Shown here: piece by piece, positions 1 to 9,600 of the stretch | How the letters are laid out: the number at the start of each line of letters is the position of its first letter | How positions within the stretch are numbered: the stretch's first letter is position 1 | Assembly (NCBI GenBank): GCA_019456225.1 | Contig: VRUI01000048.1 | Span: 1-38,721, forward strand | Direction of reading: 5' to 3' | DNA from: Planctomycetota bacterium | GTDB taxonomy: Bacteria > Planctomycetota > Phycisphaerae > Sedimentisphaerales > Anaerohalosphaeraceae | Length of the DNA: 38,721 nt | Notes under the pieces: generated by a model | Told to the model about the DNA's origin: nothing | Databases searched by the model: none | What the model saw: the letters and a program-made list of their open reading frames with translations, nothing else | Position numbers and translations under genes: made by a program

Positions 1-183
1 TCCATTGGCTTTAATGCTCCAACTGGAGTGTTTATCAATGCGAAGTTCATTATTTGAGGGTGATGGAAATGATCCAAACCTATGGTCATGCTGCTTACTA
101 TGCTTGCAGATTGGATGAATAGACAACTGTAGGAAATCATCGAGTATATAGAAGTTGAGAAAGAAATAAAATATTCTAGTAAA

Positions 184-306
184 ATGGATCAACCCAAACC
201 ATGGGGTGCGCAACAAAGCGCGCAACAGAATGATACCTTTACGCTACTATGCCGCTACTACACCGCTACGCCTTTGCGTCATAAGTCTTTTATTGACAGT
301 CATTAA
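184..306 (+). pseudogene. Possible C-terminal tail of a decayed recombinase or other gene
   Basis: An open frame of 40 codons runs from an ATG at 184 to a TAA at 304. The same frame is open back to a TAG at 130. The product contains a Gln- and Ala-rich stretch (GAQQSAQQND) and ends just before the arm-like repeats and tRNA fragment at 341-387. Planctomycete tyrosine recombinases can have such low-complexity tails next to their attachment site, so this may be the remnant of an integrase, but no catalytic motif is visible. A second frame is open from the window edge to a TGA at 55 and may be the end of another gene. Function is a guess from position only. Confidence 0.2.
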
Positions 307-420
307 TCGTTTGTTTACAAGTACTTACAAAACCCCTTGAACGGATTTCTAATCCGTAGGTCCCGTGTTCGAATCGCGGCGGGCGTGTTTGGTAAGTCTT
401 TGTTAAGTAAAGACTTACAG
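282..420. other. Probable integrase attachment region with arm-like repeats
   Basis: Short related repeats surround the tRNA fragment: AAGTCTTT near 283, GTACTTACAAA near 321, GTAAGTCTTT near 392 and AAAGACTTACA near 409. They occur in both orientations on both sides of the tRNA 3' half. Tyrosine integrases bind arm-type repeats laid out like this around a core that matches a tRNA 3' end. The arrangement is seen in the sequence; the role is inferred. Confidence 0.4.
341..387 (+). pseudogene. 3' fragment of tRNA-Arg(TCT), probable att site
   Basis: The stretch folds as the 3' half of a tRNA. The anticodon arm is 341-357, with stem ACGGA/TCCGT and loop TTTCTAA (anticodon TCT). The variable loop is 358-362. 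The T arm is 363-379, with stem CCGTG/CGCGG around TTCGAAT. The 3' acceptor strand CGGGCGT is 380-386 and the discriminator G is 387. The upstream 35 bases contain no D arm and no matching 5' acceptor strand (ACGCCCG), so the gene is not complete. Integrative elements that insert into a tRNA gene rebuild it at one end and leave exactly such a 3' copy at the other. The orientation puts the inserted element to the left of the window. Confidence 0.7.
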
Positions 421-470
421 CTTTTCAGTTTTTTTAATTTTGCCCAAAAAAGGGCGGTGCTCTGAAGTGC

Positions 471-475
471 ACTGA
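471..475. repeat. Left target-site duplication (ACTGA) of the Mu-like transposon
   Basis: The five bases ACTGA directly precede the left terminus and recur at 9171-9175 directly after the right terminus. Mu and related DDE transposons duplicate 5 bp of target. Confidence 0.85.
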
Positions 476-502
476 TGTAACCCCTATACCAAAGTGAACC
501 CT
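476..502 (+). promoter_or_regulatory. Left terminus and transposase site L1
   Basis: TGT at 476 is the terminal trinucleotide. The site ACCAAAGTGAACCCT at 488-502 matches R1 at the other end in position and sequence. It continues into AGGGGAAAT, as L2 and L3 also do with small changes. Confidence 0.75.
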
Positions 503-614
503 AGGGGAAATACCGGAAATAGCTGCACGAGGGCGCATTTCAGACCGTGTTATCTGGGTTTATGGGGCAAAAATTAGGATTCTGGGGATTTGGAAAGTGG
601 GGGTTTTGATTGAT

Positions 615-629
615 AGCAAAGTGGACCCT
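615..629 (+). promoter_or_regulatory. Transposase-binding-like site L2
   Basis: AGCAAAGTGGACCCT repeats the L1 core with one change inside AAAGTGNACCCT and is followed by a G-run and TAAAT. It also matches R2 (AGCAAAGTGAACCCA) closely. Confidence 0.65.
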
Positions 630-849
630 GGGGGGTAAATTGGCCGAAATCGGCGTTATTGGGGTTTGGGGAGTGGAGCGGATAAATCAACAAGTCTGAA
701 ACGTTTAGAAGTGCGTTCTTTTGCGATAAATTGGGGTTGGCGGTGTTTAAAAAATCAAAATCTGCACTTATGCGTTTAAAACGGCGATTTATAGCTATAC
801 TCTGTTTAAACTGGCTTCAAAGGGCCTTTACACGCTAATTAAAGATCGT

Positions 850-864
850 TTAAAAGTGTGTCCT
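850..864 (+). promoter_or_regulatory. Transposase-binding-like site L3
   Basis: TTAAAAGTGTGTCCT followed by GGGGGGAAT is a diverged third copy of the left-end repeat. Three spaced left sites recall L1-L3 of phage Mu. Confidence 0.5.
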
Positions 865-1116
865 GGGGGGAATTTCAAACGGCCCTCGGAACCACCTGCG
901 GAACCAATAAGAGATACGCTGGGTTAATTACTGTTAAGGTGGGTAAGATTTTAGCGTGAAAATTGGCTGAAATTACACGGAATAATAGACACCGTTAGTC
1001 TAATAAGCGGAAAAACCATAAAAATTCTTCAAAAATTGAGGTTTTTTTCTTAGAGAAAATTAGTATTTCTTAGAGTAATGAGCTAAGCTCTTTTAAATAA
1101 AGGGGTTACGCTCATC

Positions 1117-2199
1117 CTATTTTTTTGCGACTTTCTTTTTTGCGACTTTCTTTTTTGTCTTTGGCGGCGTTTTACGTTTGATGGCTCGCAATCTTATCAT
1201 TACTTCATCACCATAGGGGGTAAGTGCCCAATATGTTGAAGTATCCTTTATGCTTCTTGGCTTCTCACTTTTCGCAATGAGACCTAACGAACGAAGCTGA
1301 ACTTTAATTGTCTGCCAATCTGTGTCATTCATTGTAAAATATTTCAGTGTAGTGCCATAGTCATATTCCCGTTGCAATTTTTCTTTGTTCTGGTCACTCG
1401 CAAAATCACCCATGGCCTCCTTAAGACCGGCATCGGAGGCTTCATTAATCATCAGAGGCGCAAGTACCCCAAAGACTTCGTTCCATGTTGGTTTGAATGT
1501 ATTACCACCGGCATGATCTCGATAATCACCCTTTGTTTGAAAACTATAGCTAAACTTGAAAAGTTGCCGTTCCTCACCTTGGGCAAGGTTTTCACTTCCT
1601 TTAGGTGCTGTTGTCCGTACGCTTGCCAACTCGGATTGCAAATCTTCAACATTCTGACGTAGTTTCAGAAGTTCAATGGTGGCATCTTTGGTAGGTAATT
1701 CATCTGCTCTGATCCAGCCGACCGCCGGTGTTGTTTTGATCAACTGAATTAGACTTCTACTTACAACAGAGCCCAACTCTGCAGGATTTGCCCAGTGTTT
1801 GCATAGCTTCTCTTCAACAAATTCGCGGAATGCTGCAAGTTTGTCTATTCCTTCCTGCGTGGATTCACAGTTTTTTGACGGGATACTGCCAGGGTCCCTG
1901 TGAAGAAACGAAACTGTTGGTTTTCCAATGGAAAGGGCGTATCTATATTCCATCTCTGTATAGCTGAGGCCATCTGGCCCACATGACCCATAACGCCCTC
2001 CCAAAATGAGAACGTAGTAGTCGCAGTCGTCAATCACTTTTTTTATCAGCGACCACTGGCTTTCGTTTGCAGCCGGAAATAGTTCCATTCCAGATGGCAT
2101 GCAATCAAGCTCTAAAAGTGCATGCATAACCTCCTGTCTTTCCTTCTGCAAATCTTTATATGTGCTGCTTACAAAAACTTGATATCGCTTTTCCATCAT
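1117..2199 (-). CDS. DUF4062 domain protein, probable transposon cargo
   Basis: The 360-residue protein opens with the DUF4062 signature: residues 7-13 read VFVSSTY, followed by DLQKERQEV, a GMELFPAA segment and an ILGGRYGS strand, to about residue 110. DUF4062 has a TIR-like appearance and often sits at the N-terminus of NTPase or repeat proteins linked to signalling and bacterial immunity; its activity is not settled. Residues 180-205 look coiled-coil. Residues 225-340 may form a winged-helix-like domain, and the tail is a Lys-rich repeat (KKKVAKK). The start is supported by GAGAGG ahead of ATG ATG. It lies inside the Mu-like element, last in the minus-strand run after the repressor, the usual place for a passenger gene. 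A defence role is inferred from context, not shown. Confidence 0.7.
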   Translation of the reverse strand: MMEKRYQVFVSSTYKDLQKERQEVMHALLELDCMPSGMELFPAANESQWSLIKKVIDDCDYYVLILGGRYGSCGPDGLSYTEMEYRYALSIGKPTVSFLHRDPGSIPSKNCESTQEGIDKLAAFREFVEEKLCKHWANPAELGSVVSRSLIQLIKTTPAVGWIRADELPTKDATIELLKLRQNVEDLQSELASVRTTAPKGSENLAQGEERQLFKFSYSFQTKGDYRDHAGGNTFKPTWNEVFGVLAPLMINEASDAGLKEAMGDFASDQNKEKLQREYDYGTTLKYFTMNDTDWQTIKVQLRSLGLIAKSEKPRSIKDTSTYWALTPYGDEVMIRLRAIKRKTPPKTKKKVAKKKVAKK

Positions 2200-2288
2200 T
2201 TCTACTACCTCTCAATCTTCCTAGGTTTTTCCACCTAACGCCATTGAATACAACGGCTCTCAAGCTCTGAGAATGCCTTACTCCTATT

Positions 2289-2570
2289 TTAACATATTTC
2301 TTCCCATCCGTATTCTTTGTAGTCATCAACTAATGATTGTTGTTCTTCGGCGTTTCCAGCAGTATCATTGTCAAGGACAACAGATAAGTATGAATCTTGA
2401 GGGTCTTCTTCGATTGTAAAGGATACATTCGTAACCTTTTTTCCATATTCCTGCCCGTAATCACAGACGGTCATGCCCTCGTGCAAAGCGAATGGCAAAT
2501 CTATCGTTTTTCTAACCATAGAGATTCCGCCTCCTGGCTTGGTGATGGCAAATTGCAATATAGTTTTCAT
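2289..2570 (-). CDS. Hypothetical protein (93 aa) of the transposon repressor operon
   Basis: I do not recognise a family. I start the gene at the ATG at 2570, which has AGGAAG seven bases upstream; a longer open frame to 2654 would overlap the next gene. The product begins MKTILQFAITKPGGG and is acidic at its C-terminus, where the residues before the stop are YGWEEIC. It lies between the 65-aa gene and the DUF4062 gene on the minus strand and is probably co-transcribed with the repressor. Confidence 0.55.
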   Translation of the reverse strand: MKTILQFAITKPGGGISMVRKTIDLPFALHEGMTVCDYGQEYGKKVTNVSFTIEEDPQDSYLSVVLDNDTAGNAEEQQSLVDDYKEYGWEEIC

Positions 2571-2593
2571 GCAGCTTCCTTTCTGTTCAATAT

Positions 2594-2791
2594 CTATTCT
2601 TCTGTTGGTGAATCTATGTTTTGCATGGCCTCGGATTTTGCTTCCTGGAGCCACTGAATTACTACGTCAACCTGTTCTGGATTCATAATGACGATGCTAT
2701 CGACTTCTGCATGTATGTCATAGGAGCCTTTTATGCAAACATTGTTTTCTTCAGACACGTAAACTTCCAATTCTTCCATTTTCTTTTTCAT
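2594..2791 (-). CDS. Hypothetical acidic small protein (65 aa)
   Basis: The ATG at 2791 is preceded by AAGGA at good spacing, so I prefer it to the longer frame reaching 2827. The protein starts MKKKMEELEVY and is acidic, with a central strand-rich part (SIVIMNPEQ) and an acidic tail. No family is recognised. It lies 44 bp after the repressor gene and 23 bp before the 93-aa gene on the same strand. Confidence 0.5.
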   Translation of the reverse strand: MKKKMEELEVYVSEENNVCIKGSYDIHAEVDSIVIMNPEQVDVVIQWLQEAKSEAMQNIDSPTEE

Positions 2792-2835
2792 AGGGCATTC
2801 CTTATTTATCTGTTCAATAATCAACATCCGGTTTC

Positions 2836-3432
2836 TTAACCTAAATCCGATAGCAATTCTCGAAGGACTTTTTCCGTTTCCTTGTACTTCATGGCGTCAT
2901 TTTTTGCCGTATCCAGGAGCCTTTGTAGAAACTCAAGACGGTCTCTTTCAAACTTGAGATCATGCTCGATGATTTCCAGTTGATCTGGCTTAAGTTTTAG
3001 ACGGCCTGACTTATGAGCCTCTAATGATTCCAGCAATTTATCTCTTTTTTCCATGACCTTAGTGATTTCTGTTTGCTGTTTCATTTCTTCTTGCATCAGC
3101 AAACTTCCATGACTAAACAGGACGTTTTTTAAGGCTCGTTTGATTTTATTGAGCTTCTCGACATCATCCCCCAGAGCTTTAATTGCAGACCCAAACAGCA
3201 ATGCATCTGAGGATATATTGCTGTTTTTGCATATATTGATAATTGTGTTAGTCGTAGGAATTACCCTGCCTTTTTCAATGGCAGATAGGGTTGTAGGCGT
3301 TTTGAGGGAATTTTTTTTGCAAAATTCGTCTTGCGTTAAACCCTGTTCTAGACGGAGTTTACGTATCGCTTTGCCGATTCTTGCCCCAATCCGGCCTATC
3401 GAATTCGGATTTTTGCTTTGACTTCTATTCAT
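2836..3432 (-). CDS. XRE-family repressor-like regulator of the Mu-like transposon
   Basis: Residues 15-72 form a Cro/C1-type helix-turn-helix (IRKLRLEQGLTQDEF, then TTLSAIEKGRVIP). The remaining 125 residues are strongly helical and charged, probably a coiled coil for oligomerisation. It is divergent from the small HTH gene at 3525 across a 92-bp gap, the layout of a repressor/Cro switch in temperate and transposable phages. It therefore probably represses the transposition operon and its own run of genes. The ATG at 3432 has no strong Shine-Dalgarno sequence. The family assignment is from sequence; the regulatory target is inferred from position. Confidence 0.7.
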   Translation of the reverse strand: MNRSQSKNPNSIGRIGARIGKAIRKLRLEQGLTQDEFCKKNSLKTPTTLSAIEKGRVIPTTNTIINICKNSNISSDALLFGSAIKALGDDVEKLNKIKRALKNVLFSHGSLLMQEEMKQQTEITKVMEKRDKLLESLEAHKSGRLKLKPDQLEIIEHDLKFERDRLEFLQRLLDTAKNDAMKYKETEKVLRELLSDLG

Positions 3433-3524
3433 AATAGGGTAAACTCTGTTTTAGTAGGACTAATTGTTCTAGTAATTATAATATAACGGCAATTAATCAA
3501 AAGTCAATACGAAAGGCTAAATCG
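3433..3524. promoter_or_regulatory. Divergent promoter/operator between repressor and Cro-like gene
   Basis: The gap is AT-rich and holds overlapping inverted repeats: TTAGTAGGACTAA at 3451-3463 and ACTAATTGTTCTAGT at 3459-3473. TATAAT at 3477-3482 could be a plus-strand -10 box. On the minus strand TTGACT and TATATT stand 16 bases apart and could serve the repressor. The repeats are natural operator candidates. Confidence 0.5.
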
Positions 3525-3740
3525 ATGAAATTTGATAGAGTTGTTTTGGATGCCGAGAGAGTGCAAGCATATCGCAGAAAGAATGCTTTCGGGAAGATCG
3601 AATTTTATAAAAAGATCAAAGTTAGCACTTTGACTGGTATGAGAATCTTAGAGGGCAAATATGTTAGCCTGGTTGTTGCAAAAAAAGTTGCCGCAACTAT
3701 AGGCGTCAATGCTCAAGATTTAATTCAGTCATGGGAATAA
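3525..3740 (+). CDS. Small Cro/Ner-like HTH protein
   Basis: The 71-residue protein has a short helix-turn-helix pattern: residues 25-50 (FYKKIKVSTLTGMRILEGK) followed by VAKKVAATIGV. It is the first gene of the plus-strand transposition operon and faces the repressor gene. That is the position of ner in phage Mu and cro in lambda, so it probably tunes early transcription. AAAGG precedes the ATG. It ends 15 bp before the transposase gene. The assignment is based on context plus weak sequence pattern. Confidence 0.55.
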   Translation: MKFDRVVLDAERVQAYRRKNAFGKIEFYKKIKVSTLTGMRILEGKYVSLVVAKKVAATIGVNAQDLIQSWE

Positions 3741-3755
3741 TAAAAGGCTTTAACA

Positions 3756-5726
3756 GTGGCAAATTACATTGATATAAAAGAAGCAGCAAGCCGACTCAAT
3801 ATATCCGAGCGTGCGGTTAGAAAACAATGTATCGCCGGTAAGCTGCCAGCTTCCAAAAAAGTTGGGATTGAATGGAAAATACCCGTTACCGCTGATTTAC
3901 GGTTGGGGCGTGTGAAGTTCCCAGAGCAGCTTACAAAAGAATTAGACTTTGACGGTTACGATCCTGATAAGGTAAAAGAGGGTTATCAAAAGCTTGGCAT
4001 GATAAAGGGCTTTGAGGGGTTTTCAGGTATTCACGTTCACAACGGCGGATTGAGAACCGAAGCGATTGAAATGTTTGCAGCCAAAAATGGATTATCGAAA
4101 AGCACCTTAAGACGCTGGATTAGAGAATATCGCAGACAAGGCTTGCTTGGTCTTATTGATAAAAGAGGCGGGGACAGGTTTGATTGTGAGAAAATCAATG
4201 ATGATGCGTTTGAGTTTTTCAAGGCAATGTATCTGACAGAGCAGCAATTAAGCGTTAAGGTTTGCTGGCAAAATCTCATATATAAAAACAAAAGCGAGCA
4301 ATTAGACTGGGTGATTCCAAATTACAACGGCATGTGCAAGTATGTCGAACGCAATGTACCGATTCCGGCTTTGATTTACCATCGAGAGGGCATAGCAGCG
4401 TATGAAGCTAAATGCGCTCCGTATATTCAAAGCGACCCGGACAGTATCGAGCCTGGTGCGATATGGGTTGGCGATCACCACCAGTTCAATTGTATGATCT
4501 ATCACAGAGGTAATTGGGTTCGTCCCTGGCTAACTGCCTGGGAAGATATGCGAAGCCGTACTATTATCGGTTGGCATGTTTCAGTATCGCCTAATCAAAC
4601 AACGATCATGCAGGCCATGAGGGGAGGCATTGAAAAGTACGGCCCGCCCGATTCCGTCAAGATCGATAACGGTAGAGATTACGATTCGCAGATGTGGACA
4701 GGTGAAACTAAAGCAGCTCGCAAGAGTCGCAAGGCCCTGAAAGCCGGTTACATCGATGAGGGTACGGTAAGAGGGATTTACGCAATGATGAATATCGGCG
4801 TATCTTTTTCGATTCCTTATCATCCACAGTCAAAGCTAGTTGAACGTTTCTTTGACACTTTGGATTGTCATTTTACTAAAACGCTGCCGACTTATTGCGG
4901 TAAAGATTCAGGGCGAAAGCCGGATTCCCTGAATGATTTATTGAAATCGTCGAAAGCCATAGCCGAAGCGGAAAGCCTTGAAAGCTTTACGCAAAAGGTA
5001 GGCGGGTATTTGGAAAGCTATAACAATAGAAAACATTCGGGCCGTGGAATGGATGGGAGAACACCGGCCCAGGTCTTAGCGTCAAGATCGTCACGGCGTG
5101 TGCTGCTTGACGGCACTTTGGATTTATTGCTGCGGGTATGGAGTGGAGAACGCAAAGTCGGTAAAAACGGTGTCCGGTTTATGAGACTGCTTTTCGGGCA
5201 ATTTGACGCTCCGTTGCTCGCTCGCTTCGGCAAAAAAGTCCGGGTTAGTTATGACCCTGACGATATTCGCCGGATTAGCGTATATGACGCTACAACATTT
5301 AAGTTGATTACGATAGCAGAGCAGAACGAACTTATCCGGTACGGCTACGCAGTCAGCGAGGAGGCCCTGCGGAAAGCAATGAAACAGAAAGCAACCGCAG
5401 CCAGGCAAAATAGGAATTTTGTCGATTCGCAGCGAATTGGAAATATGACCCTTGCCGACTTGACGGCCAAGGCCATGCAGGACGCGCGTGAGGATCCACC
5501 TGAAACACCACGGCAAACAATTAAACCCGTTGCAACGCCAATTGATAACCAGGTATATGCACATGAGAGGCGTGTAAATATTCGCAAGGTGAAAATCGCG
5601 GCGGGTGCGGAGTCGATGCACAATGTACCTGTTTTAGATATAGACGTTAACAGACTTTCAACCAGGAACAGCAAGCCGAAACGTGTTAATGATTTGGGGT
5701 TTGATTTTTTTAAGGGGAAACTATGA
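3756..5726 (+). CDS. MuA-like DDE transposase
   Basis: This 656-residue protein should cut and join the element ends. Residues 1-52 form a MerR/excisionase-type winged helix (IDIKEAASRLNISERAVRK) like the end-binding domain of MuA. A second HTH (LSKSTLRRWIREYRRQG) lies near 113-130. The RNase-H-fold core carries D240 (VGDHHQ), D304 (KIDNGRDY) and E363 (KLVERFF); the spacing resembles MuA D269, D336 and E392. A Mu-type C-terminal beta-barrel and a basic tail follow. The length is close to MuA. The start is GTG with AAAGG nine bases upstream. Its stop overlaps the ATG of the MuB-like gene (ATGA), which indicates translational coupling. Confidence 0.93.
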   Translation: MANYIDIKEAASRLNISERAVRKQCIAGKLPASKKVGIEWKIPVTADLRLGRVKFPEQLTKELDFDGYDPDKVKEGYQKLGMIKGFEGFSGIHVHNGGLRTEAIEMFAAKNGLSKSTLRRWIREYRRQGLLGLIDKRGGDRFDCEKINDDAFEFFKAMYLTEQQLSVKVCWQNLIYKNKSEQLDWVIPNYNGMCKYVERNVPIPALIYHREGIAAYEAKCAPYIQSDPDSIEPGAIWVGDHHQFNCMIYHRGNWVRPWLTAWEDMRSRTIIGWHVSVSPNQTTIMQAMRGGIEKYGPPDSVKIDNGRDYDSQMWTGETKAARKSRKALKAGYIDEGTVRGIYAMMNIGVSFSIPYHPQSKLVERFFDTLDCHFTKTLPTYCGKDSGRKPDSLNDLLKSSKAIAEAESLESFTQKVGGYLESYNNRKHSGRGMDGRTPAQVLASRSSRRVLLDGTLDLLLRVWSGERKVGKNGVRFMRLLFGQFDAPLLARFGKKVRVSYDPDDIRRISVYDATTFKLITIAEQNELIRYGYAVSEEALRKAMKQKATAARQNRNFVDSQRIGNMTLADLTAKAMQDAREDPPETPRQTIKPVATPIDNQVYAHERRVNIRKVKIAAGAESMHNVPVLDIDVNRLSTRNSKPKRVNDLGFDFFKGKL

Positions 5727-6841
5727 GTAATTTACAAGAAGGGCTTGAACGGGATGCCAGGCTAGTCGACGAACATATTCCAAAGAAACTAACGATACCG
5801 GAAATTGAGAAAACCGCTGAATCATTAAAGCAGTTTATGACTCTAAACGATTATTCGCAAGCGAGAATTGCACGATATATCGGTTGCTCGAAATCTGTTG
5901 TTTCGGAATTCTTGCGGGGTAAATACCTGGGCGATATTGATGCCGTTGGAAATAAGGTTATCAACCTTATGAATTCGGTTGCCCGAAAGCATAGACAACC
6001 GAAGAATGAACATTTTATATCAACTACGGTTGCCAAACGCATAGGAACGCTTGTAACGCAAACAGAGGCCTTTTCTGGTGATGAGGGAAAGATAGCCCTG
6101 GTTATCGGTGACGGCGGACACGGTAAGTCTCACTGTCTTAGAGAGTATGCCAGGGCGAACCGTAATTCCGTATATATAGAACTTGACGAAACAATGAACT
6201 CCACGAATTTATTTTCTGAAATAGCTGACAATCTCAAAATCGATTCGTCCGGGGCACTGTCGGCAATTGCAAAGCGACTTACCGAGACGCTTCGGGAACG
6301 CCAGGTAATTATAATTCTCGATGAAGCGTCAGGGCTTAATGTTAAGAAGCTGAATCAACTTCGGCAGATCATTGTCGTCAAGGCTCGGTGTCCGCTTATC
6401 CTGGCGGGCAATTGCGATCTATTAAAGACGGTTAATCAGTCCTCAACCAAACGGGGTTATGAATCGCTCGACCAGTTTACAAGCCGTCTGATGGGCGTTC
6501 TTAACCTGGACGAGTTAGCTTGCGATAATGACGGCGGTTTGTACACCTCTGAGGACGTCCGAAATCTTTACGAATATGGTGGGATAAGGCTTTCAGTTGG
6601 GGCGGTAAATACACTTAAGCGAATATGCAAAACTCCGAAATCGGGACGTTTGCGGACTTGCAATCATGTCATAGCAGCACTGCACACAGCGAAAGTCGTA
6701 GACGAAAAAGGTATTATCGATACCGCTGATATTATTGCAGCAATTGAACAATTGCAATTGCCTGTAAATGTGTGGCTGCCAATAACCACAATAGAAGCGG
6801 GTGAGGTTGAGGGTGTTGATTCTATATCGATGTTGGCGTAA
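5723..6841 (+). CDS. MuB-like AAA+ ATPase, target-DNA activator
   Basis: The 372-residue protein has an N-terminal HTH (ARIARYIGCSKSVVSEF, residues 48-64) as in MuB. An AAA+ domain follows, with Walker A GDGGHGKS at 129-136 and Walker B IIILDEAS with D200 and E201. A sensor-1-like LAGNCDLL and a C-terminal helical region follow. MuB coats target DNA in an ATP-dependent way, delivers it to MuA and confers target immunity. The gene overlaps the transposase by 4 bp, the invariant A-B order of Mu. It is about 60 residues longer than MuB of Mu, mostly at the N-terminus. Confidence 0.9.
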   Translation: MSNLQEGLERDARLVDEHIPKKLTIPEIEKTAESLKQFMTLNDYSQARIARYIGCSKSVVSEFLRGKYLGDIDAVGNKVINLMNSVARKHRQPKNEHFISTTVAKRIGTLVTQTEAFSGDEGKIALVIGDGGHGKSHCLREYARANRNSVYIELDETMNSTNLFSEIADNLKIDSSGALSAIAKRLTETLRERQVIIILDEASGLNVKKLNQLRQIIVVKARCPLILAGNCDLLKTVNQSSTKRGYESLDQFTSRLMGVLNLDELACDNDGGLYTSEDVRNLYEYGGIRLSVGAVNTLKRICKTPKSGRLRTCNHVIAALHTAKVVDEKGIIDTADIIAAIEQLQLPVNVWLPITTIEAGEVEGVDSISMLA

Positions 6842-6868
6842 TTATGAATTTATTCAAGGGGTTTTAAA

Positions 6869-7477
6869 ATGATTAGAGCAAACGATAAAAAGGAAGTTAC
6901 AACTTTAATTGAAGAATGGGCCGGACACTTCGGGACAAGCGATGACCGGCAGAATGGAACCAGAGAAATATGTTTCGACGAAAGCACAATAGACGTTGCC
7001 GACCAAATCACGATGTGTCTGGAGGGGATCAGTGTAATCCCGGAACTGTTCATGGATAGCTGTTTGAGCAAGAGGGAACAGAATGGGTTATGTATGATCA
7101 CGCAAATGATTACACAGGCAGCCAGTAAGGCTATAAACTTTTTGTATGAAGATCATCAAAGCGAAAGAGGTCGTAATGGAGCATTACGGCGTGAAGTAGA
7201 AAGCCTCCAGGCGGAAAATGAGCAGATTGAGCAGCGAGCAAAGCAAGCCGAAAGAGCAGCCGATCCGGGTATACTCCAGACGATACAGGCTACCGAAAGC
7301 ACACGCCAGGTGTATGTTTTGTTTATGGATGCCGTCAATAAAGGTGCTTTGGGGCAAGGTGCAAGTAATGCTTATGATGAACTTATCAGCAAGCTTGCTG
7401 AAATTGAGGTTTCACCCGGTGACGTTATCGATCATTTGGCGAAAGCTGGGCATGAAGCTACTTTGGTCACGGCGTAA
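6869..7477 (+). CDS. Hypothetical coiled-coil protein of the transposon early operon
   Basis: I do not recognise a family. The 202-residue protein is acidic. Residues 95-135 form a coiled coil (REVESLQAENEQIEQRAKQA), with a helical C-terminus (AYDELISKLAEIEVS). AAGGGG stands ahead of the ATG at 6869, 27 bp after the MuB-like gene. In Mu the genes after B are semi-essential early genes such as gam and kil; no gam similarity is visible here. Confidence 0.6.
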   Translation: MIRANDKKEVTTLIEEWAGHFGTSDDRQNGTREICFDESTIDVADQITMCLEGISVIPELFMDSCLSKREQNGLCMITQMITQAASKAINFLYEDHQSERGRNGALRREVESLQAENEQIEQRAKQAERAADPGILQTIQATESTRQVYVLFMDAVNKGALGQGASNAYDELISKLAEIEVSPGDVIDHLAKAGHEATLVTA

Positions 7478-7608
7478 AATGGACGCCACAGACTGCCCGT
7501 GAGCGGCGAAACGGCACTGCTTGAGTACCAAAGCTCGCAATCGCAGCCTGTTGGCTTAGTCGCTAATCTGAGGTGTTTTATAGCAGACGACAATTTAAGG
7601 ATTATATT
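7478..7608 (+). other. 131-bp gap inside the transposon early operon
   Basis: This gap is longer than the others in the run. It is richer in G+C than its flanks and has no convincing gene; an ATG at 7479 opens a frame of only 7 codons. It could hold an internal promoter or processing site for the last two genes, but I see no consensus. Confidence 0.3.
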
Positions 7609-8256
7609 ATGAGCGAAAGTTATAGTTTTTTAATTGAAACTCCACTCGGCAACTACGAACTTAAAGCCGAAACCGAGCAGGAATTGCAGTCCTGGAATTC
7701 GACCCAAACAACTGACATAATCCGGGGACTCATCAAGTCCAAACCTAAGTACGATTCCGAAACGTTCGCAAACAATAAATATCGATTGACATTTAAGACT
7801 CCATACGGTTGTTACCAGATAGAAGCGGATAGTGCTGCCAGGTTGATTTTGCTAAGCTCACCAAAAACAACGATGATGGTTGAAACTCTAATCGGTTCAG
7901 AATCAGAATTTGCCCTCGGCCTGGCGATTCGGGAAGTATTACGGCCCTGTGATGGGAGTGAGGAAGAAGATTATAATTTAGATATTGCTGCAAAGGAAGC
8001 GTTGGCGATTTATTACAAAAACAAGGGTAAGCCTGCCAGGCATTCCCACGGCTCAACTATTTACGGGGCTGGTGTAGAACTAGATTTAATTAAGTGCTAT
8101 TTGCAGGATATGACTGCGAAGCAAATTATTGAATGGTTAAAGAACAATAGAAGTTTCGATACTAATAGTTCTACGGTTGGTCGTTACACAAGGCTCTTGT
8201 GGGGGTATGGCGTTCGTCCGATCAGGAAAGCAGCTAGCGAGGTAAGCAATGAGTGA
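7609..8256 (+). CDS. Hypothetical protein with a C-terminal HTH-like segment
   Basis: I start at the ATG at 7609, which has TTAAGGA upstream; the frame could begin 12 codons earlier at a GTG without good support. The 215-residue protein has two related halves near its start: SFLIETPLGNYELKAET at residues 5-21 and RLTFKTPYGCYQIEADS about 47 residues later. These look like a duplicated small beta motif. The C-terminus (IIEWLKNNRSFDTNSSTVGRY) resembles the helix-turn-helix of the next gene. Its stop overlaps that gene by 8 bp. No named family is assigned. Confidence 0.6.
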   Translation: MSESYSFLIETPLGNYELKAETEQELQSWNSTQTTDIIRGLIKSKPKYDSETFANNKYRLTFKTPYGCYQIEADSAARLILLSSPKTTMMVETLIGSESEFALGLAIREVLRPCDGSEEEDYNLDIAAKEALAIYYKNKGKPARHSHGSTIYGAGVELDLIKCYLQDMTAKQIIEWLKNNRSFDTNSSTVGRYTRLLWGYGVRPIRKAASEVSNE

Positions 8257-8854
8257 GGCCAAAGAGTACAAGAGACGCACACACAGCACAATAGACCTAT
8301 TGCCAAAGCAGCTTCAAGAGGCGATTATGTTAATGGTGGTCGATAGCGTTTGGCCGGACGATCACAAGGGAGCCAGGAGCGGTAAGCCACGGTATAAAGA
8401 CGCTGCAAGTTACATAGCCCAAAAGGGGCACAATGTCAGCGTCTACGCCGTAGGCAGGTACGCAAGGCGTTTGCGGCACTTCGCCCGCATGAAAGACGCA
8501 GGTCAAACAGTCAGAGACGTTATGAGCAATTTGAACAATGAGAAAGCTTCGGCAACACAAAAGGCAACCGCTGAATTGATAACGGCGGTAATCATTGACT
8601 CTCTTGCAAATGGTGATGAGCCAACAATAGAAGACTTGAAAAACTTGGCAAAAGCGGTCAAGGATTGCGCCTGGGTGTCAATGAAAGCAGATGAGTACAT
8701 TCGGCAGCGTATCGCTGAGCGAGTAGAAAAGGCTGATAAGAATATCAGTCTGATAGGCAAGAAGAAACGCATTGACCCTGAAACCCTCAAGGCGATCAAA
8801 GAGCAGGTTTACGGGATCATTGATGACAAGCTGGGTATTAGCCCAGGCAGATAA
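8249..8854 (+). CDS. DUF3486 family protein (phage Mu gp27-like)
   Basis: The 201-residue protein matches the DUF3486 pattern. A basic start runs into STIDLLPKQLQEAI. A predicted HTH follows (YKDAASYIAQKGHNVSVYAV, then GRYARRL) and a helical C-terminus. In phage Mu, gp27 sits with gp28 (large terminase) just before the head genes and is thought to be a small packaging component. Here no terminase, portal or capsid gene follows; only the right end of the element does. It may be retained for another DNA-binding role or be a relic of a phage ancestor. Confidence 0.7.
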   Translation: MSEAKEYKRRTHSTIDLLPKQLQEAIMLMVVDSVWPDDHKGARSGKPRYKDAASYIAQKGHNVSVYAVGRYARRLRHFARMKDAGQTVRDVMSNLNNEKASATQKATAELITAVIIDSLANGDEPTIEDLKNLAKAVKDCAWVSMKADEYIRQRIAERVEKADKNISLIGKKKRIDPETLKAIKEQVYGIIDDKLGISPGR

Positions 8855-8858
8855 GCAG

Positions 8859-8914
8859 ATTTAAACATGGTTTAAATGCCATGAAAACGCTGATTAAAAA
8901 GCGTATATATTTTT
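8859..8914 (+). terminator. Possible terminator after the transposon operon
   Basis: An inverted repeat ATTTAAAC-ATG-GTTTAAAT lies just after the last gene. A second small hairpin at 8887-8904 (ACGCT/AGCGT) is followed by ATATATTTTTATT. The stem is short and the U-run imperfect, so this is tentative. Confidence 0.35.
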
Positions 8915-9122
8915 ATTATAAGGCTGTTACAGATTAATAATAAAATCAGTGCGAAAAACAGTTTTAATGCAAGGCATTATATGAATTGATAGACAAATAA
9001 GACACGACATACTGCAATAGTTCGGTATGAAAGCTGTCTTTATATGAGTTGAAAAGCCGTGAAAATCGTCGATTTTCCAAAAAATCTGGCGATTTTTTGC
9101 GGATTTTTTACGCGCATTGGGT
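8915..9122. other. Non-coding right arm of the Mu-like transposon
   Basis: AT-rich DNA with no gene lies between the last gene and the right-end sites. A run near 9060-9110 is rich in GATTTTT/AAAATC pieces (CGATTTTCC, GCGATTTTTTGCGG) and could contain a weak third right-end site, which I cannot define. Confidence 0.4.
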
Positions 9123-9170
9123 TGGGTTCACTTTGCTATTGCAAAAGTCCATTTTGGTCGCGCCGCTACA
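9123..9170 (-). promoter_or_regulatory. Right terminus with transposase sites R1 and R2
   Basis: Read on the minus strand from 9170, the end begins TGTAGC. R1 is ACCAAAATGGACTTT (9158-9144) and R2 is AGCAAAGTGAACCCA (9137-9123). R1 begins 12 bases from the end, exactly like L1. R1 and R2 starts are 21 bases apart, about two helical turns, as for R1 and R2 of phage Mu. Confidence 0.75.
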
Positions 9171-9175
9171 ACTGA
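9171..9175. repeat. Right target-site duplication (ACTGA)
   Basis: Direct repeat of 471-475, immediately outside the ACA terminus. Confidence 0.85.
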
Positions 9176-9600
9176 AAAGAGCCGAACACCAGCAGGGGGA
9201 TTTCTCTGTTTTTCAGAATCCGTTGCTCGTACAGTGCAAAAACTCATTCACACTTAAATCCTTGCTCATCAACAAGTTAATATTCAGAAATTGAGCCGAA
9301 ACAAGGCGACTCTTTTGCCAAACTTGACATGAATCGTTCATTCGGATGTACAAAATCGTTTGATGCGCAGACAGTCACATTTCTTATTCCAAAGTTGAAG
9401 TCCCTCTGCTATTCTTATGCAGCCAATCTGTATTCTTCTTGACAAACGTTTCATTGATTTCAACAAGTTCAGCAACCTGTTTTTCAAGTTTCGCGATGCG
9501 GCGAATATAGAATTGTTCTGTTTTTCAAGTCAAGTTTCGTCCTCAAGTTTGCCAACACGATTATTATCGGACCAATTTAGGGCTTTTCTTGAGACAAATA
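9176..9600. other. Gene-poor DNA between transposon and GH127 gene
   Basis: No intact gene. On the minus strand, around 9380-9510, a frame encodes a coiled-coil-like stretch (RIAKLEKQVAELVEINE) followed by KKNTDWLHKNS. This faintly recalls the N-terminus of IS66-type transposases, but the frame is short and I could not tie it to a known motif. Before the Mu-like insertion this DNA was continuous with position 475. Confidence 0.35.

What the first reader, a model, noticed from the sequence alone, without database searches (positions are those of the whole stretch)
341..387. tRNA-Arg(TCT) 3' half marks the end of an unseen integrative element
Seen: anticodon arm, T arm and 3' acceptor strand without a 5' half, flanked by arm-type-like repeats in both orientations. 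Known: integrases leave such copies. Inferred: an island or prophage lies to the left, ending near 340-387, and the Mu-like element later landed 88 bp beyond it.
Basis: partly seen in the sequence, partly recalled or inferred. Interest (0 to 1): 0.55.

Follow-up and report, generated by a model that had tools for sequence, protein, structure and literature searches.

The report
tRNA-anchored mobile element junction
A leftover half of an arginine tRNA gene marks where one mobile element ends and probably a second, decayed one begins; it belongs to a family of elements, found across one group of planctomycete-type bacteria, that splice themselves into the anticodon loops of several different tRNA genes.

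Summary
Window 340-387 is a 48/48 copy of the 3' part (nt 27-74) of tRNA-Arg(TCT); the one intact gene found lies 117 bases from the end of another contig. Left of it (about 186-331) is an attachment-site arm: tandem 11-12-bp repeats plus a conserved 56-bp block. A model of that block matches 96 of 148 related genomes at E<=0.01. Of 85 distinct copies read, 64 are followed within 20 nt by part of a tRNA gene (random control 13 of 1,700), mostly Phe, Asp and Arg, with identity starting at the anticodon stem-loop. The right flank is probably not native chromosome: it resembles the integrase-side end of a second element, later split by a Mu-like transposon (476-9170, duplication ACTGA). The linked integrase family adjoins an intact tRNA in 25 of 30 loci, at the 3' side in 20 and the 5' side in 5; one well-supported clade switches both tRNA and gene half. 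tRNA-gene islands are well known. I found no description of this family in the papers searched. The left element's integrase and interior are unseen, and contig breaks hide the physical link.

The parts
186..200 (+). outermost conserved block of the distal arm (GGATCAACCCAAACC)
   Evidence: window 182-272 is 83/92 alignment columns identical to G074:C97, where the arm abuts a tRNA-Phe half; similar blocks are visible upstream of other copies
206..228 (+). tandem pair of 11-12-bp repeats (GTGCGCAACAA / AGCGCGCAACAG); inferred integrase arm-type sites
   Evidence: period 11/12 enrichment over shuffles; a matching pair occurs at the integrase-side end, 19 of 26 such ends at 8/9 or better at period 11 against 0.3% of shuffles; the two ends resemble each other more within an element's genome and tRNA class than across genomes, permutation p=0.0004
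241..272 (+). three 11-bp tandem repeats (nCGCTACtann); inferred directionality-factor (Xis) sites
   Evidence: function inferred from position only
276..331 (+). 56-bp distal arm block with inverted TAAGT..ACTTA repeats
   Evidence: alignment A1 of 44 copies, mean column identity 80%; model R1 hits 96 of 148 relatives
340..387 (+). 3' part of tRNA-Arg(TCT), nt 27-74, 48/48 identical to the intact gene at C101
341..357 (+). anticodon stem-loop = inferred crossover region (7-nt loop 346-352 as overlap, stem halves as core sites)
   Evidence: identity of 59 3' parts starts at tRNA nt 22-38, most often 28; of five 5' parts at nt 39-45
388..475 (+). probable integrase-side end of a second element: hairpin 392-418 and a 10-bp tandem pair (GTGCTCTGAA/GTGCACTGA) at 457-475
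   Evidence: alignment to G076 right flank, hairpin z=-2.98, tandem pair reached by 6 of 2,000 shuffles
471..475 (+). ACTGA target duplication, left copy (right copy 9171-9175)
476..9170 (+). Mu-like transposon with TGTA...TACA ends; Mu-type transposase 3756-5726, AAA/TniB-like 5723-6841, Mu Gp27-like 8249-8854
   Evidence: ends and duplication; Pfam

Best explanation
340-387 is the displaced 3' part of tRNA-Arg(TCT) at the distal end of an integrative element (A) lying to the left. Shown: the 48-nt copy, the intact gene elsewhere, the recurrent distal arm, and its linkage to tRNA parts in relatives. Inferred mechanism: a tyrosine integrase pairs the element's circular attP (distal arm, tRNA 3' part, integrase-side arm) with the anticodon stem-loop of the tRNA gene and exchanges strands across the 7-bp loop. 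The element brings a replacement 3' part (with its own hairpin) to the tRNA, and the old 3' part ends up at the far end. Tandem 11-12-bp repeats at both ends would bind the integrase's arm-binding domain, and the three 11-bp repeats on the distal side a directionality factor. Probable: the tRNA had earlier been occupied by a second element (B) of the family; A then entered the restored tRNA, so 340-387 is B's restoring half and 388-475 is B's integrase-side end. B has lost its integrase, and a Mu-like transposon later split the B end.
For: Intact tRNA-Arg(TCT) and 48/48 identity. Own genome: the same arm before a tRNA-Phe half at C143 (64/68 identical) and a diverged one before a tRNA-Asp part at C54; intact Phe (C112) and Asp (C60) genes each adjoin an integrase gene or its C-terminal end. 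Relatives: 96 of 148 with an arm hit; 64 of 85 distinct sites abut part of a tRNA gene against 13 of 1,700 random stretches. Integrase family beside an intact tRNA in 25 of 30 loci. End repeats agree between the two ends (p=0.0004). Second element: G051 shows partial arm, Arg part, right arm and integrase C-terminus in a row; G076 shows Arg part, a right flank like the window's, and an integrase C-terminus; the window's right flank has a tandem pair at +70 as in G076 (+71) and G051 (+70). Its type (GTGCTCTGAA) differs from the left pair (GTGCGCAACAA), which fits two different elements.
Against: C101 and C100 are not joined in the assembly, so element A is inferred from two contig ends; its integrase is unseen. 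At G076 the arm model does not match left of the fragment (best there E 3.6), so that locus may be a decayed attL and not a tandem junction. The window holds no integrase match right of the fragment, and homology to G076 beyond the transposon is weak (5 of 500 shuffles reach it). In the own genome the Phe pair C143/C112 carries different end repeats. 21 of 85 arm sites have no tRNA part at the threshold used, and 7 of the 64 have 20 nt or fewer, four of them only the anticodon stem-loop.
Confidence: 0.85

Rival explanations
1. Single island: 340-387 is the ordinary displaced 3' half and 388-475 is the native flank of tRNA-Arg(TCT), its own terminator. No second element is involved.
For: 388-440 folds into a clean hairpin (z=-2.98); other tRNAs of this genome have similar hairpins after them, e.g. 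Val(GAC), Asn(GTT); no integrase lies to the right.
Against: Homology of 388-475 to G076, which leads into an integrase C-terminus; tandem repeat pair at the place where integrase-side ends carry theirs. None of the intact tRNA-Arg(TCT) flanks that I printed shows the TTTTGCCCAAAAAnnGGCGGTGCTC stretch.
Confidence: 0.2
2. The site is an intact attP of one element (free circle or its ends joined), not a junction of two elements.
For: Arms on both sides of the core look like a whole attP.
Against: The repeat types on the two sides differ (GTGCGCAACAA against GTGCTCTGAA), a transposon splits the right arm, and biosynthetic genes (carbamoyltransferase and dihydroorotase-like, 34-36.6 kb) follow on the same contig.
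Confidence: 0.06
3. A tRNA pseudogene left by duplication, deletion or misassembly, unrelated to integration.
For: Contig-end position; binned metagenome-style assembly of 152 contigs.
Against: The same arm-to-tRNA junction recurs in many genomes with different tRNAs and a fixed breakpoint.
Confidence: 0.04
4. The half tRNA is transcribed as a small RNA from a promoter inside the arm.
For: TTGACA-17-TACAAG in the arm, 10/12, reached by 20 of 1,000 shuffles.
Against: The dedicated scanner finds no promoter in 1-600; many relatives keep only short or no tRNA parts after the arm.
Confidence: 0.03

Closest known systems
tRNA/tmRNA-gene genomic islands with tyrosine integrases (Islander catalogue, PMC4383910, passages read)
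   Same: intact tRNA at one end, displaced fragment at the other; anticodon-centred crossover is common there (2,083 of 3,919 islands); tandem islands occur (125)
   Different: one integrase family here keeps a conserved distal arm while using Phe, Asp, Lys and several Arg tRNAs, and 5 of 25 tRNA-linked loci replace the 5' part, against 159 of 3,919 islands in that catalogue
Lambda-type attP (recalled)
   Same: 7-bp overlap between inverted core sites, arm-type repeats on both arms, extra repeats on one arm as for Xis
   Different: arm repeats are tandem 11-12-bp pairs; the core is a tRNA anticodon stem-loop; the roles of the repeats are inferred
pTN3-type archaeal integrases (PMC8371274 and PMC5495485, passages read)
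   Same: can replace the 5' half of a tRNA gene so that the tRNA is expressed from an element-borne promoter
   Different: there the integrase gene is itself split and attB is the 5' half; here the integrase is intact and both 3' and 5' modes occur within one clade
Integrons with CALIN arrays, and tycheposons (PMC11389934, passages read)
   Same: non-autonomous units sharing recombination sites are conceivable (four integrase-free segments seen)
   Different: the crossover is a double-stranded tRNA anticodon region; no attC or IntI was looked for; trans-mobilisation is not shown

Membership tests
tRNA-gene integrative elements with tyrosine integrases | intact tRNA gene plus a displaced fragment of the same gene in one genome | tested here: met
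   48/48 identity, C101 against window
tRNA-gene integrative elements with tyrosine integrases | breakpoint in a known sub-location (anticodon loop, T loop or 3' end) | tested here: met
   identity starts at the anticodon stem (59 3' parts)
tRNA-gene integrative elements with tyrosine integrases | tRNA and fragment on one replicon in the right order and orientation | tested here: inconclusive
   separate contigs C101 and C100; orientations are compatible
tRNA-gene integrative elements with tyrosine integrases | integrase gene inside the element | tested here: inconclusive
   not visible for this copy; the family's integrase adjoins the tRNA in 25 of 30 loci of relatives and at C112 and C60 in this genome
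Tandem tRNA islands | each element has its own tRNA fragment and integrase | tested here: inconclusive
   G051 shows the full junction; in G041 tRNA-Asp plus integrase, a second Asp part plus integrase remnant, and a distal arm lie within about 162 kb, but no arm is detected at the middle junction; in the window the right-hand integrase is missing
Family described here (conserved distal arm plus linked integrase) | 56-bp distal arm next to part of a tRNA gene | tested here: met
   window scores 64.7 bits with R1 (it is one of the 44 sequences that built the model)
Integron gene cassettes | attC sites recombined by IntI | not tested
   no attC or IntI search was made
Prophage | virion genes within the element | not testable with these tools
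   the interior of element A is not in the assembly; one scan of viral contigs with the L124 integrase found no relative

The most novel reading that the evidence does not exclude
One integrase lineage retargets itself by swapping a module made of the core, the tRNA-restoring half and the integrase-side end (terminator type for 3' replacement, promoter type for 5' replacement), while keeping a near-universal distal arm. In effect it is a plug that can be fitted to almost any anticodon stem-loop, and it may also mobilise integrase-free cargo units carrying matching end repeats.
Probability: 0.4. Interest if true: 0.65.

Novelty: new variant of a known kind. Interest (0 to 1): 0.45.

Why it matters
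tRNA genes are classic docking sites for mobile DNA, but how integrases change target is poorly understood. Here closely related integrases, sharing a distal arm, sit at different tRNAs and on opposite halves of the gene, and the 5'-type ends carry a strong promoter in place of the one displaced. That gives a natural series for testing how target choice, end-repeat recognition and tRNA rescue evolve, in a bacterial group with few genetic data. It also explains why assemblies of these genomes break near tRNA genes.

Tried and rejected
Integrase in the window: none (tblastn with the L124 integrase; PF00589 scan of the whole genome gave no C100 hit). Source of the arm outside the order: 4 of 294 genomes drawn from the phylum match R1 at E<=1e-5 and all four are of the window's family or order. 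Viral origin: one viral-contig scan with the L124 integrase found nothing; other queries were not tried. Direct linkage of C101 to C100: not possible, contig ends. Cassette-array idea: four segments bounded by arm sites and/or an intact tRNA (L131, L135, L220, L120) hold no PF00589 match, but L220 keeps what look like the last bases of an integrase and L131, L220 and L120 do not have matching repeats at both ends, so most look like decayed elements; only L135 has matching end repeats. G076 as a clean tandem junction: weakened, since the arm model does not match there. One fold (L239) was of a wrongly chosen stretch and is not used.

Counts and drops: the covariation test used 40 site labels of 87 site rows, typed; of its 16 matched pairs four score 17 or less. 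One search joined the empty site two bases off; it was redone. The tree used 29 integrases; L153 and L127 dropped out for length or lack of a match, and L195 likewise.

Full report
What was checked. The window is a whole contig (G000:C100, 38,721 bases) of a 152-contig genome. The fragment at 340-387 is identical over 48/48 bases to nt 27-74 of tRNA-Arg(TCT) at C101:118-191, minus strand. No other intact tRNA-Arg(TCT) turned up among the loci typed with ARAGORN; not every weak tRNA match was typed.

The left flank is a recurrent arm. A BLAST of window 262-350 in the own genome found C143:2384-2451 (94%), where a 48/48 tRNA-Phe(GAA) 3' part follows, and a weaker C54 site, where a tRNA-Asp(GTC) part follows. 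The intact Phe gene is at C112:282-354 with an integrase C-terminus 27 bases beyond its 3' end (85-residue frame at C112:1-255); the intact Asp gene at C60 adjoins an integrase. A search of 148 related genomes with window 262-474 showed the left arm on its own in many of them. An alignment of 44 copies gives a 56-bp block, mean column identity 80%. A sequence-only model of it matches 96 of 148 relatives at E<=0.01, and 4 of 294 genomes drawn from the phylum at E<=1e-5, all four from the window's family or order.

The arm abuts tRNA genes. In the fetched loci there are 85 distinct arm sites. 64 are followed within 20 nt by a stretch matching a tRNA gene at E<=1e-3, against 13 of 1,700 random stretches from the same loci. 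By best match: Phe 23, Asp 20 (3') and 1 (5'), Arg(TCT) 6, Met 5, Pro 3, Arg(CCT) 3 (5'), Lys(TTT) 1 (5'), Arg(ACG) 1, Arg(CCG) 1. Match lengths are over 35 nt in 44, 21-35 nt in 13 and 20 nt or less in 7; four of the last have only the anticodon stem-loop followed by TTGCTC. Identity starts at tRNA nt 22-38 for the 59 3' parts (mode 28) and 39-45 for the five 5' parts. The crossover is therefore placed at the anticodon loop. Of the 21 sites without a tRNA part, about 11 share a different core (GGACTkGTTGaCC-like) that is not a tRNA.

The far side of such elements. Of the 30 best integrase loci (query: the 436-aa integrase of G100), 25 have an intact tRNA 30-163 bases beyond the aligned C-terminus: Asp 9, Phe 9, Lys 2, Arg(TCG) 2, Arg(TCT), Arg(ACG) and Arg(CCT) 1 each. 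In 20 the tRNA's 3' side faces the integrase, in 5 its 5' side. The family matches in 83 of 148 genomes at E<=1e-10. The five 5'-type ends, and the integrase-free L220, have a TTGAC[A/G]-17/18-TATAAT-like promoter (10-11 of 12 matches) between element and tRNA, reached by 0-7 of 1,000 shuffles. Six 3'-type ends read the same way score 6-8. So 5'-type elements bring a promoter along with the 5' part. In the tree of 29 integrases, a clade with support 100/99 joins Arg(TCT) 5', Arg(CCT) 5' and two Phe 3' loci; target and gene half have both changed within it.

Anatomy of the ends. Left of the arm block are 11- and 12-bp tandem repeats: over 84 sites, at least 9/11 self-match in 57% (period 11) and 60% (period 12), against about 1% of shuffles. 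Integrase-side ends carry an 11-bp tandem pair in 19 of 26 (8/9 or better; shuffles 0.3%). The pairs at the two ends resemble each other more when genome and tRNA class agree (16 pairs, mean score 28.0) than across genomes within a class (314 pairs, 18.7), permutation p=0.0004; four of the 16 score 17 or less. I infer integrase arm sites. Window 182-272 is 83/92 identical to the arm at G074:C97, which abuts a tRNA-Phe half: nearly the same distal end before two different tRNAs.

The right flank. 388-475 aligns to G076 (score 79 for 388-470), where an integrase C-terminal remnant follows, and less well to G051 (score 39, not tested against chance), where partial arm, Arg part and integrase C-terminus follow in a row. 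It holds a 10-bp tandem pair at +70, reached by 6 of 2,000 shuffles (three periods tried), as G076 does at +71 and G051 at +70 (11 bp). I read it as the integrase-side end of a second element B, older than A. Against this: at G076 the arm model does not match left of the fragment, the window has no integrase match, and 388-440 could be a native hairpin (z=-2.98). In the complete genome G041, tRNA-Asp with integrase (1,619,733), a second Asp part with an integrase remnant (about 1,732,600) and a distal arm with an Asp part (1,782,191) lie in one line over 162 kb, but no arm is found at the middle point.

The transposon. Ends TGTAACCCC and TACA, duplication ACTGA at 471-475 and 9171-9175; Mu-type transposase, AAA/TniB-like protein and a Mu Gp27-like protein inside. 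It cuts the tandem pair of the right arm.

What is known. Islander (PMC4383910, passages): 3,760 islands with 3' and 159 with 5' fragments, 2,083 anticodon-centred, 125 tandems. The archaeal recombinase review (PMC8371274, passages) says that expression from an element promoter after 5'-half integration is seldom met in bacteria. Searches for 'Phycisphaer' with integrase, tRNA and genomic island gave two papers, neither about this from the listing; 'Sedimentisphaer' (an order name that I guessed) with integrase gave none. The library is open-access PMC only. Williams 2002 is known to me by recall and through citations in those papers.

Verdict. The family behind it is a notable variant: a shared distal arm, several tRNAs, both gene halves.

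Noticed in passing
L062 (C101):1-66: The contig next to the intact tRNA-Arg starts in a sequence that looks like the 5' end of a group II intron just behind the element's hairpin (by eye, recalled motif).
   Followed up: no
G000: C22, C33, C89, C46, C126 (loci L019, L020, L024, L039, L022): tRNA-Arg(CCT), (ACG), (CCG) and Met genes share another conserved downstream sequence (TAAGTCGTTGTAAACACT...GACGCGTTTTTTATGGCGTATAAC type, with a variant at C126), probably ends of a second element family.
   Followed up: no
L146/L205, L206, L207, L200, L201, L202, L223, L224, L225, L230: About 11 arm sites are followed by a non-tRNA core (GGACTkGTTGaCC-like); some contigs hold two or three such sites.
   Followed up: partly
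L118:15623, L122:3735, L140:1717, L143:1977, L193:13326: Cores that keep only the anticodon stem-loop and continue as TTGCTC, the reverse complement of the tRNA's own GAGCAA, making a longer palindrome.
   Followed up: partly
L131:7929-11414, L135:7537-11129, L220:5351-7460, L120:6788-8355: Segments between arm sites and/or an intact tRNA with no PF00589 match, carrying a GH43/ILEI protein, an IS-like transposase (by eye), a GH120-type beta-helix protein and a PEMT/ICMT protein. L135 has matching end repeats.
   Followed up: partly
L124, L234, L235: Integrases 95-100% identical at tRNA-Asp or an Asp half in genomes assigned to two families, suggesting recent transfer or binning error.
   Followed up: no
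window 75-161: Matches C39:1527-1613 at 75%, where a transposase-like frame begins (by eye); likely a transposase remnant inside the element.
   Followed up: no
window 9217-9228: AATCCGTTGCTC right of the transposon repeats the reverse complement of GAGCAACGGATT from the tRNA; G076 has AATCCGTTGGTC at the comparable place.
   Followed up: no
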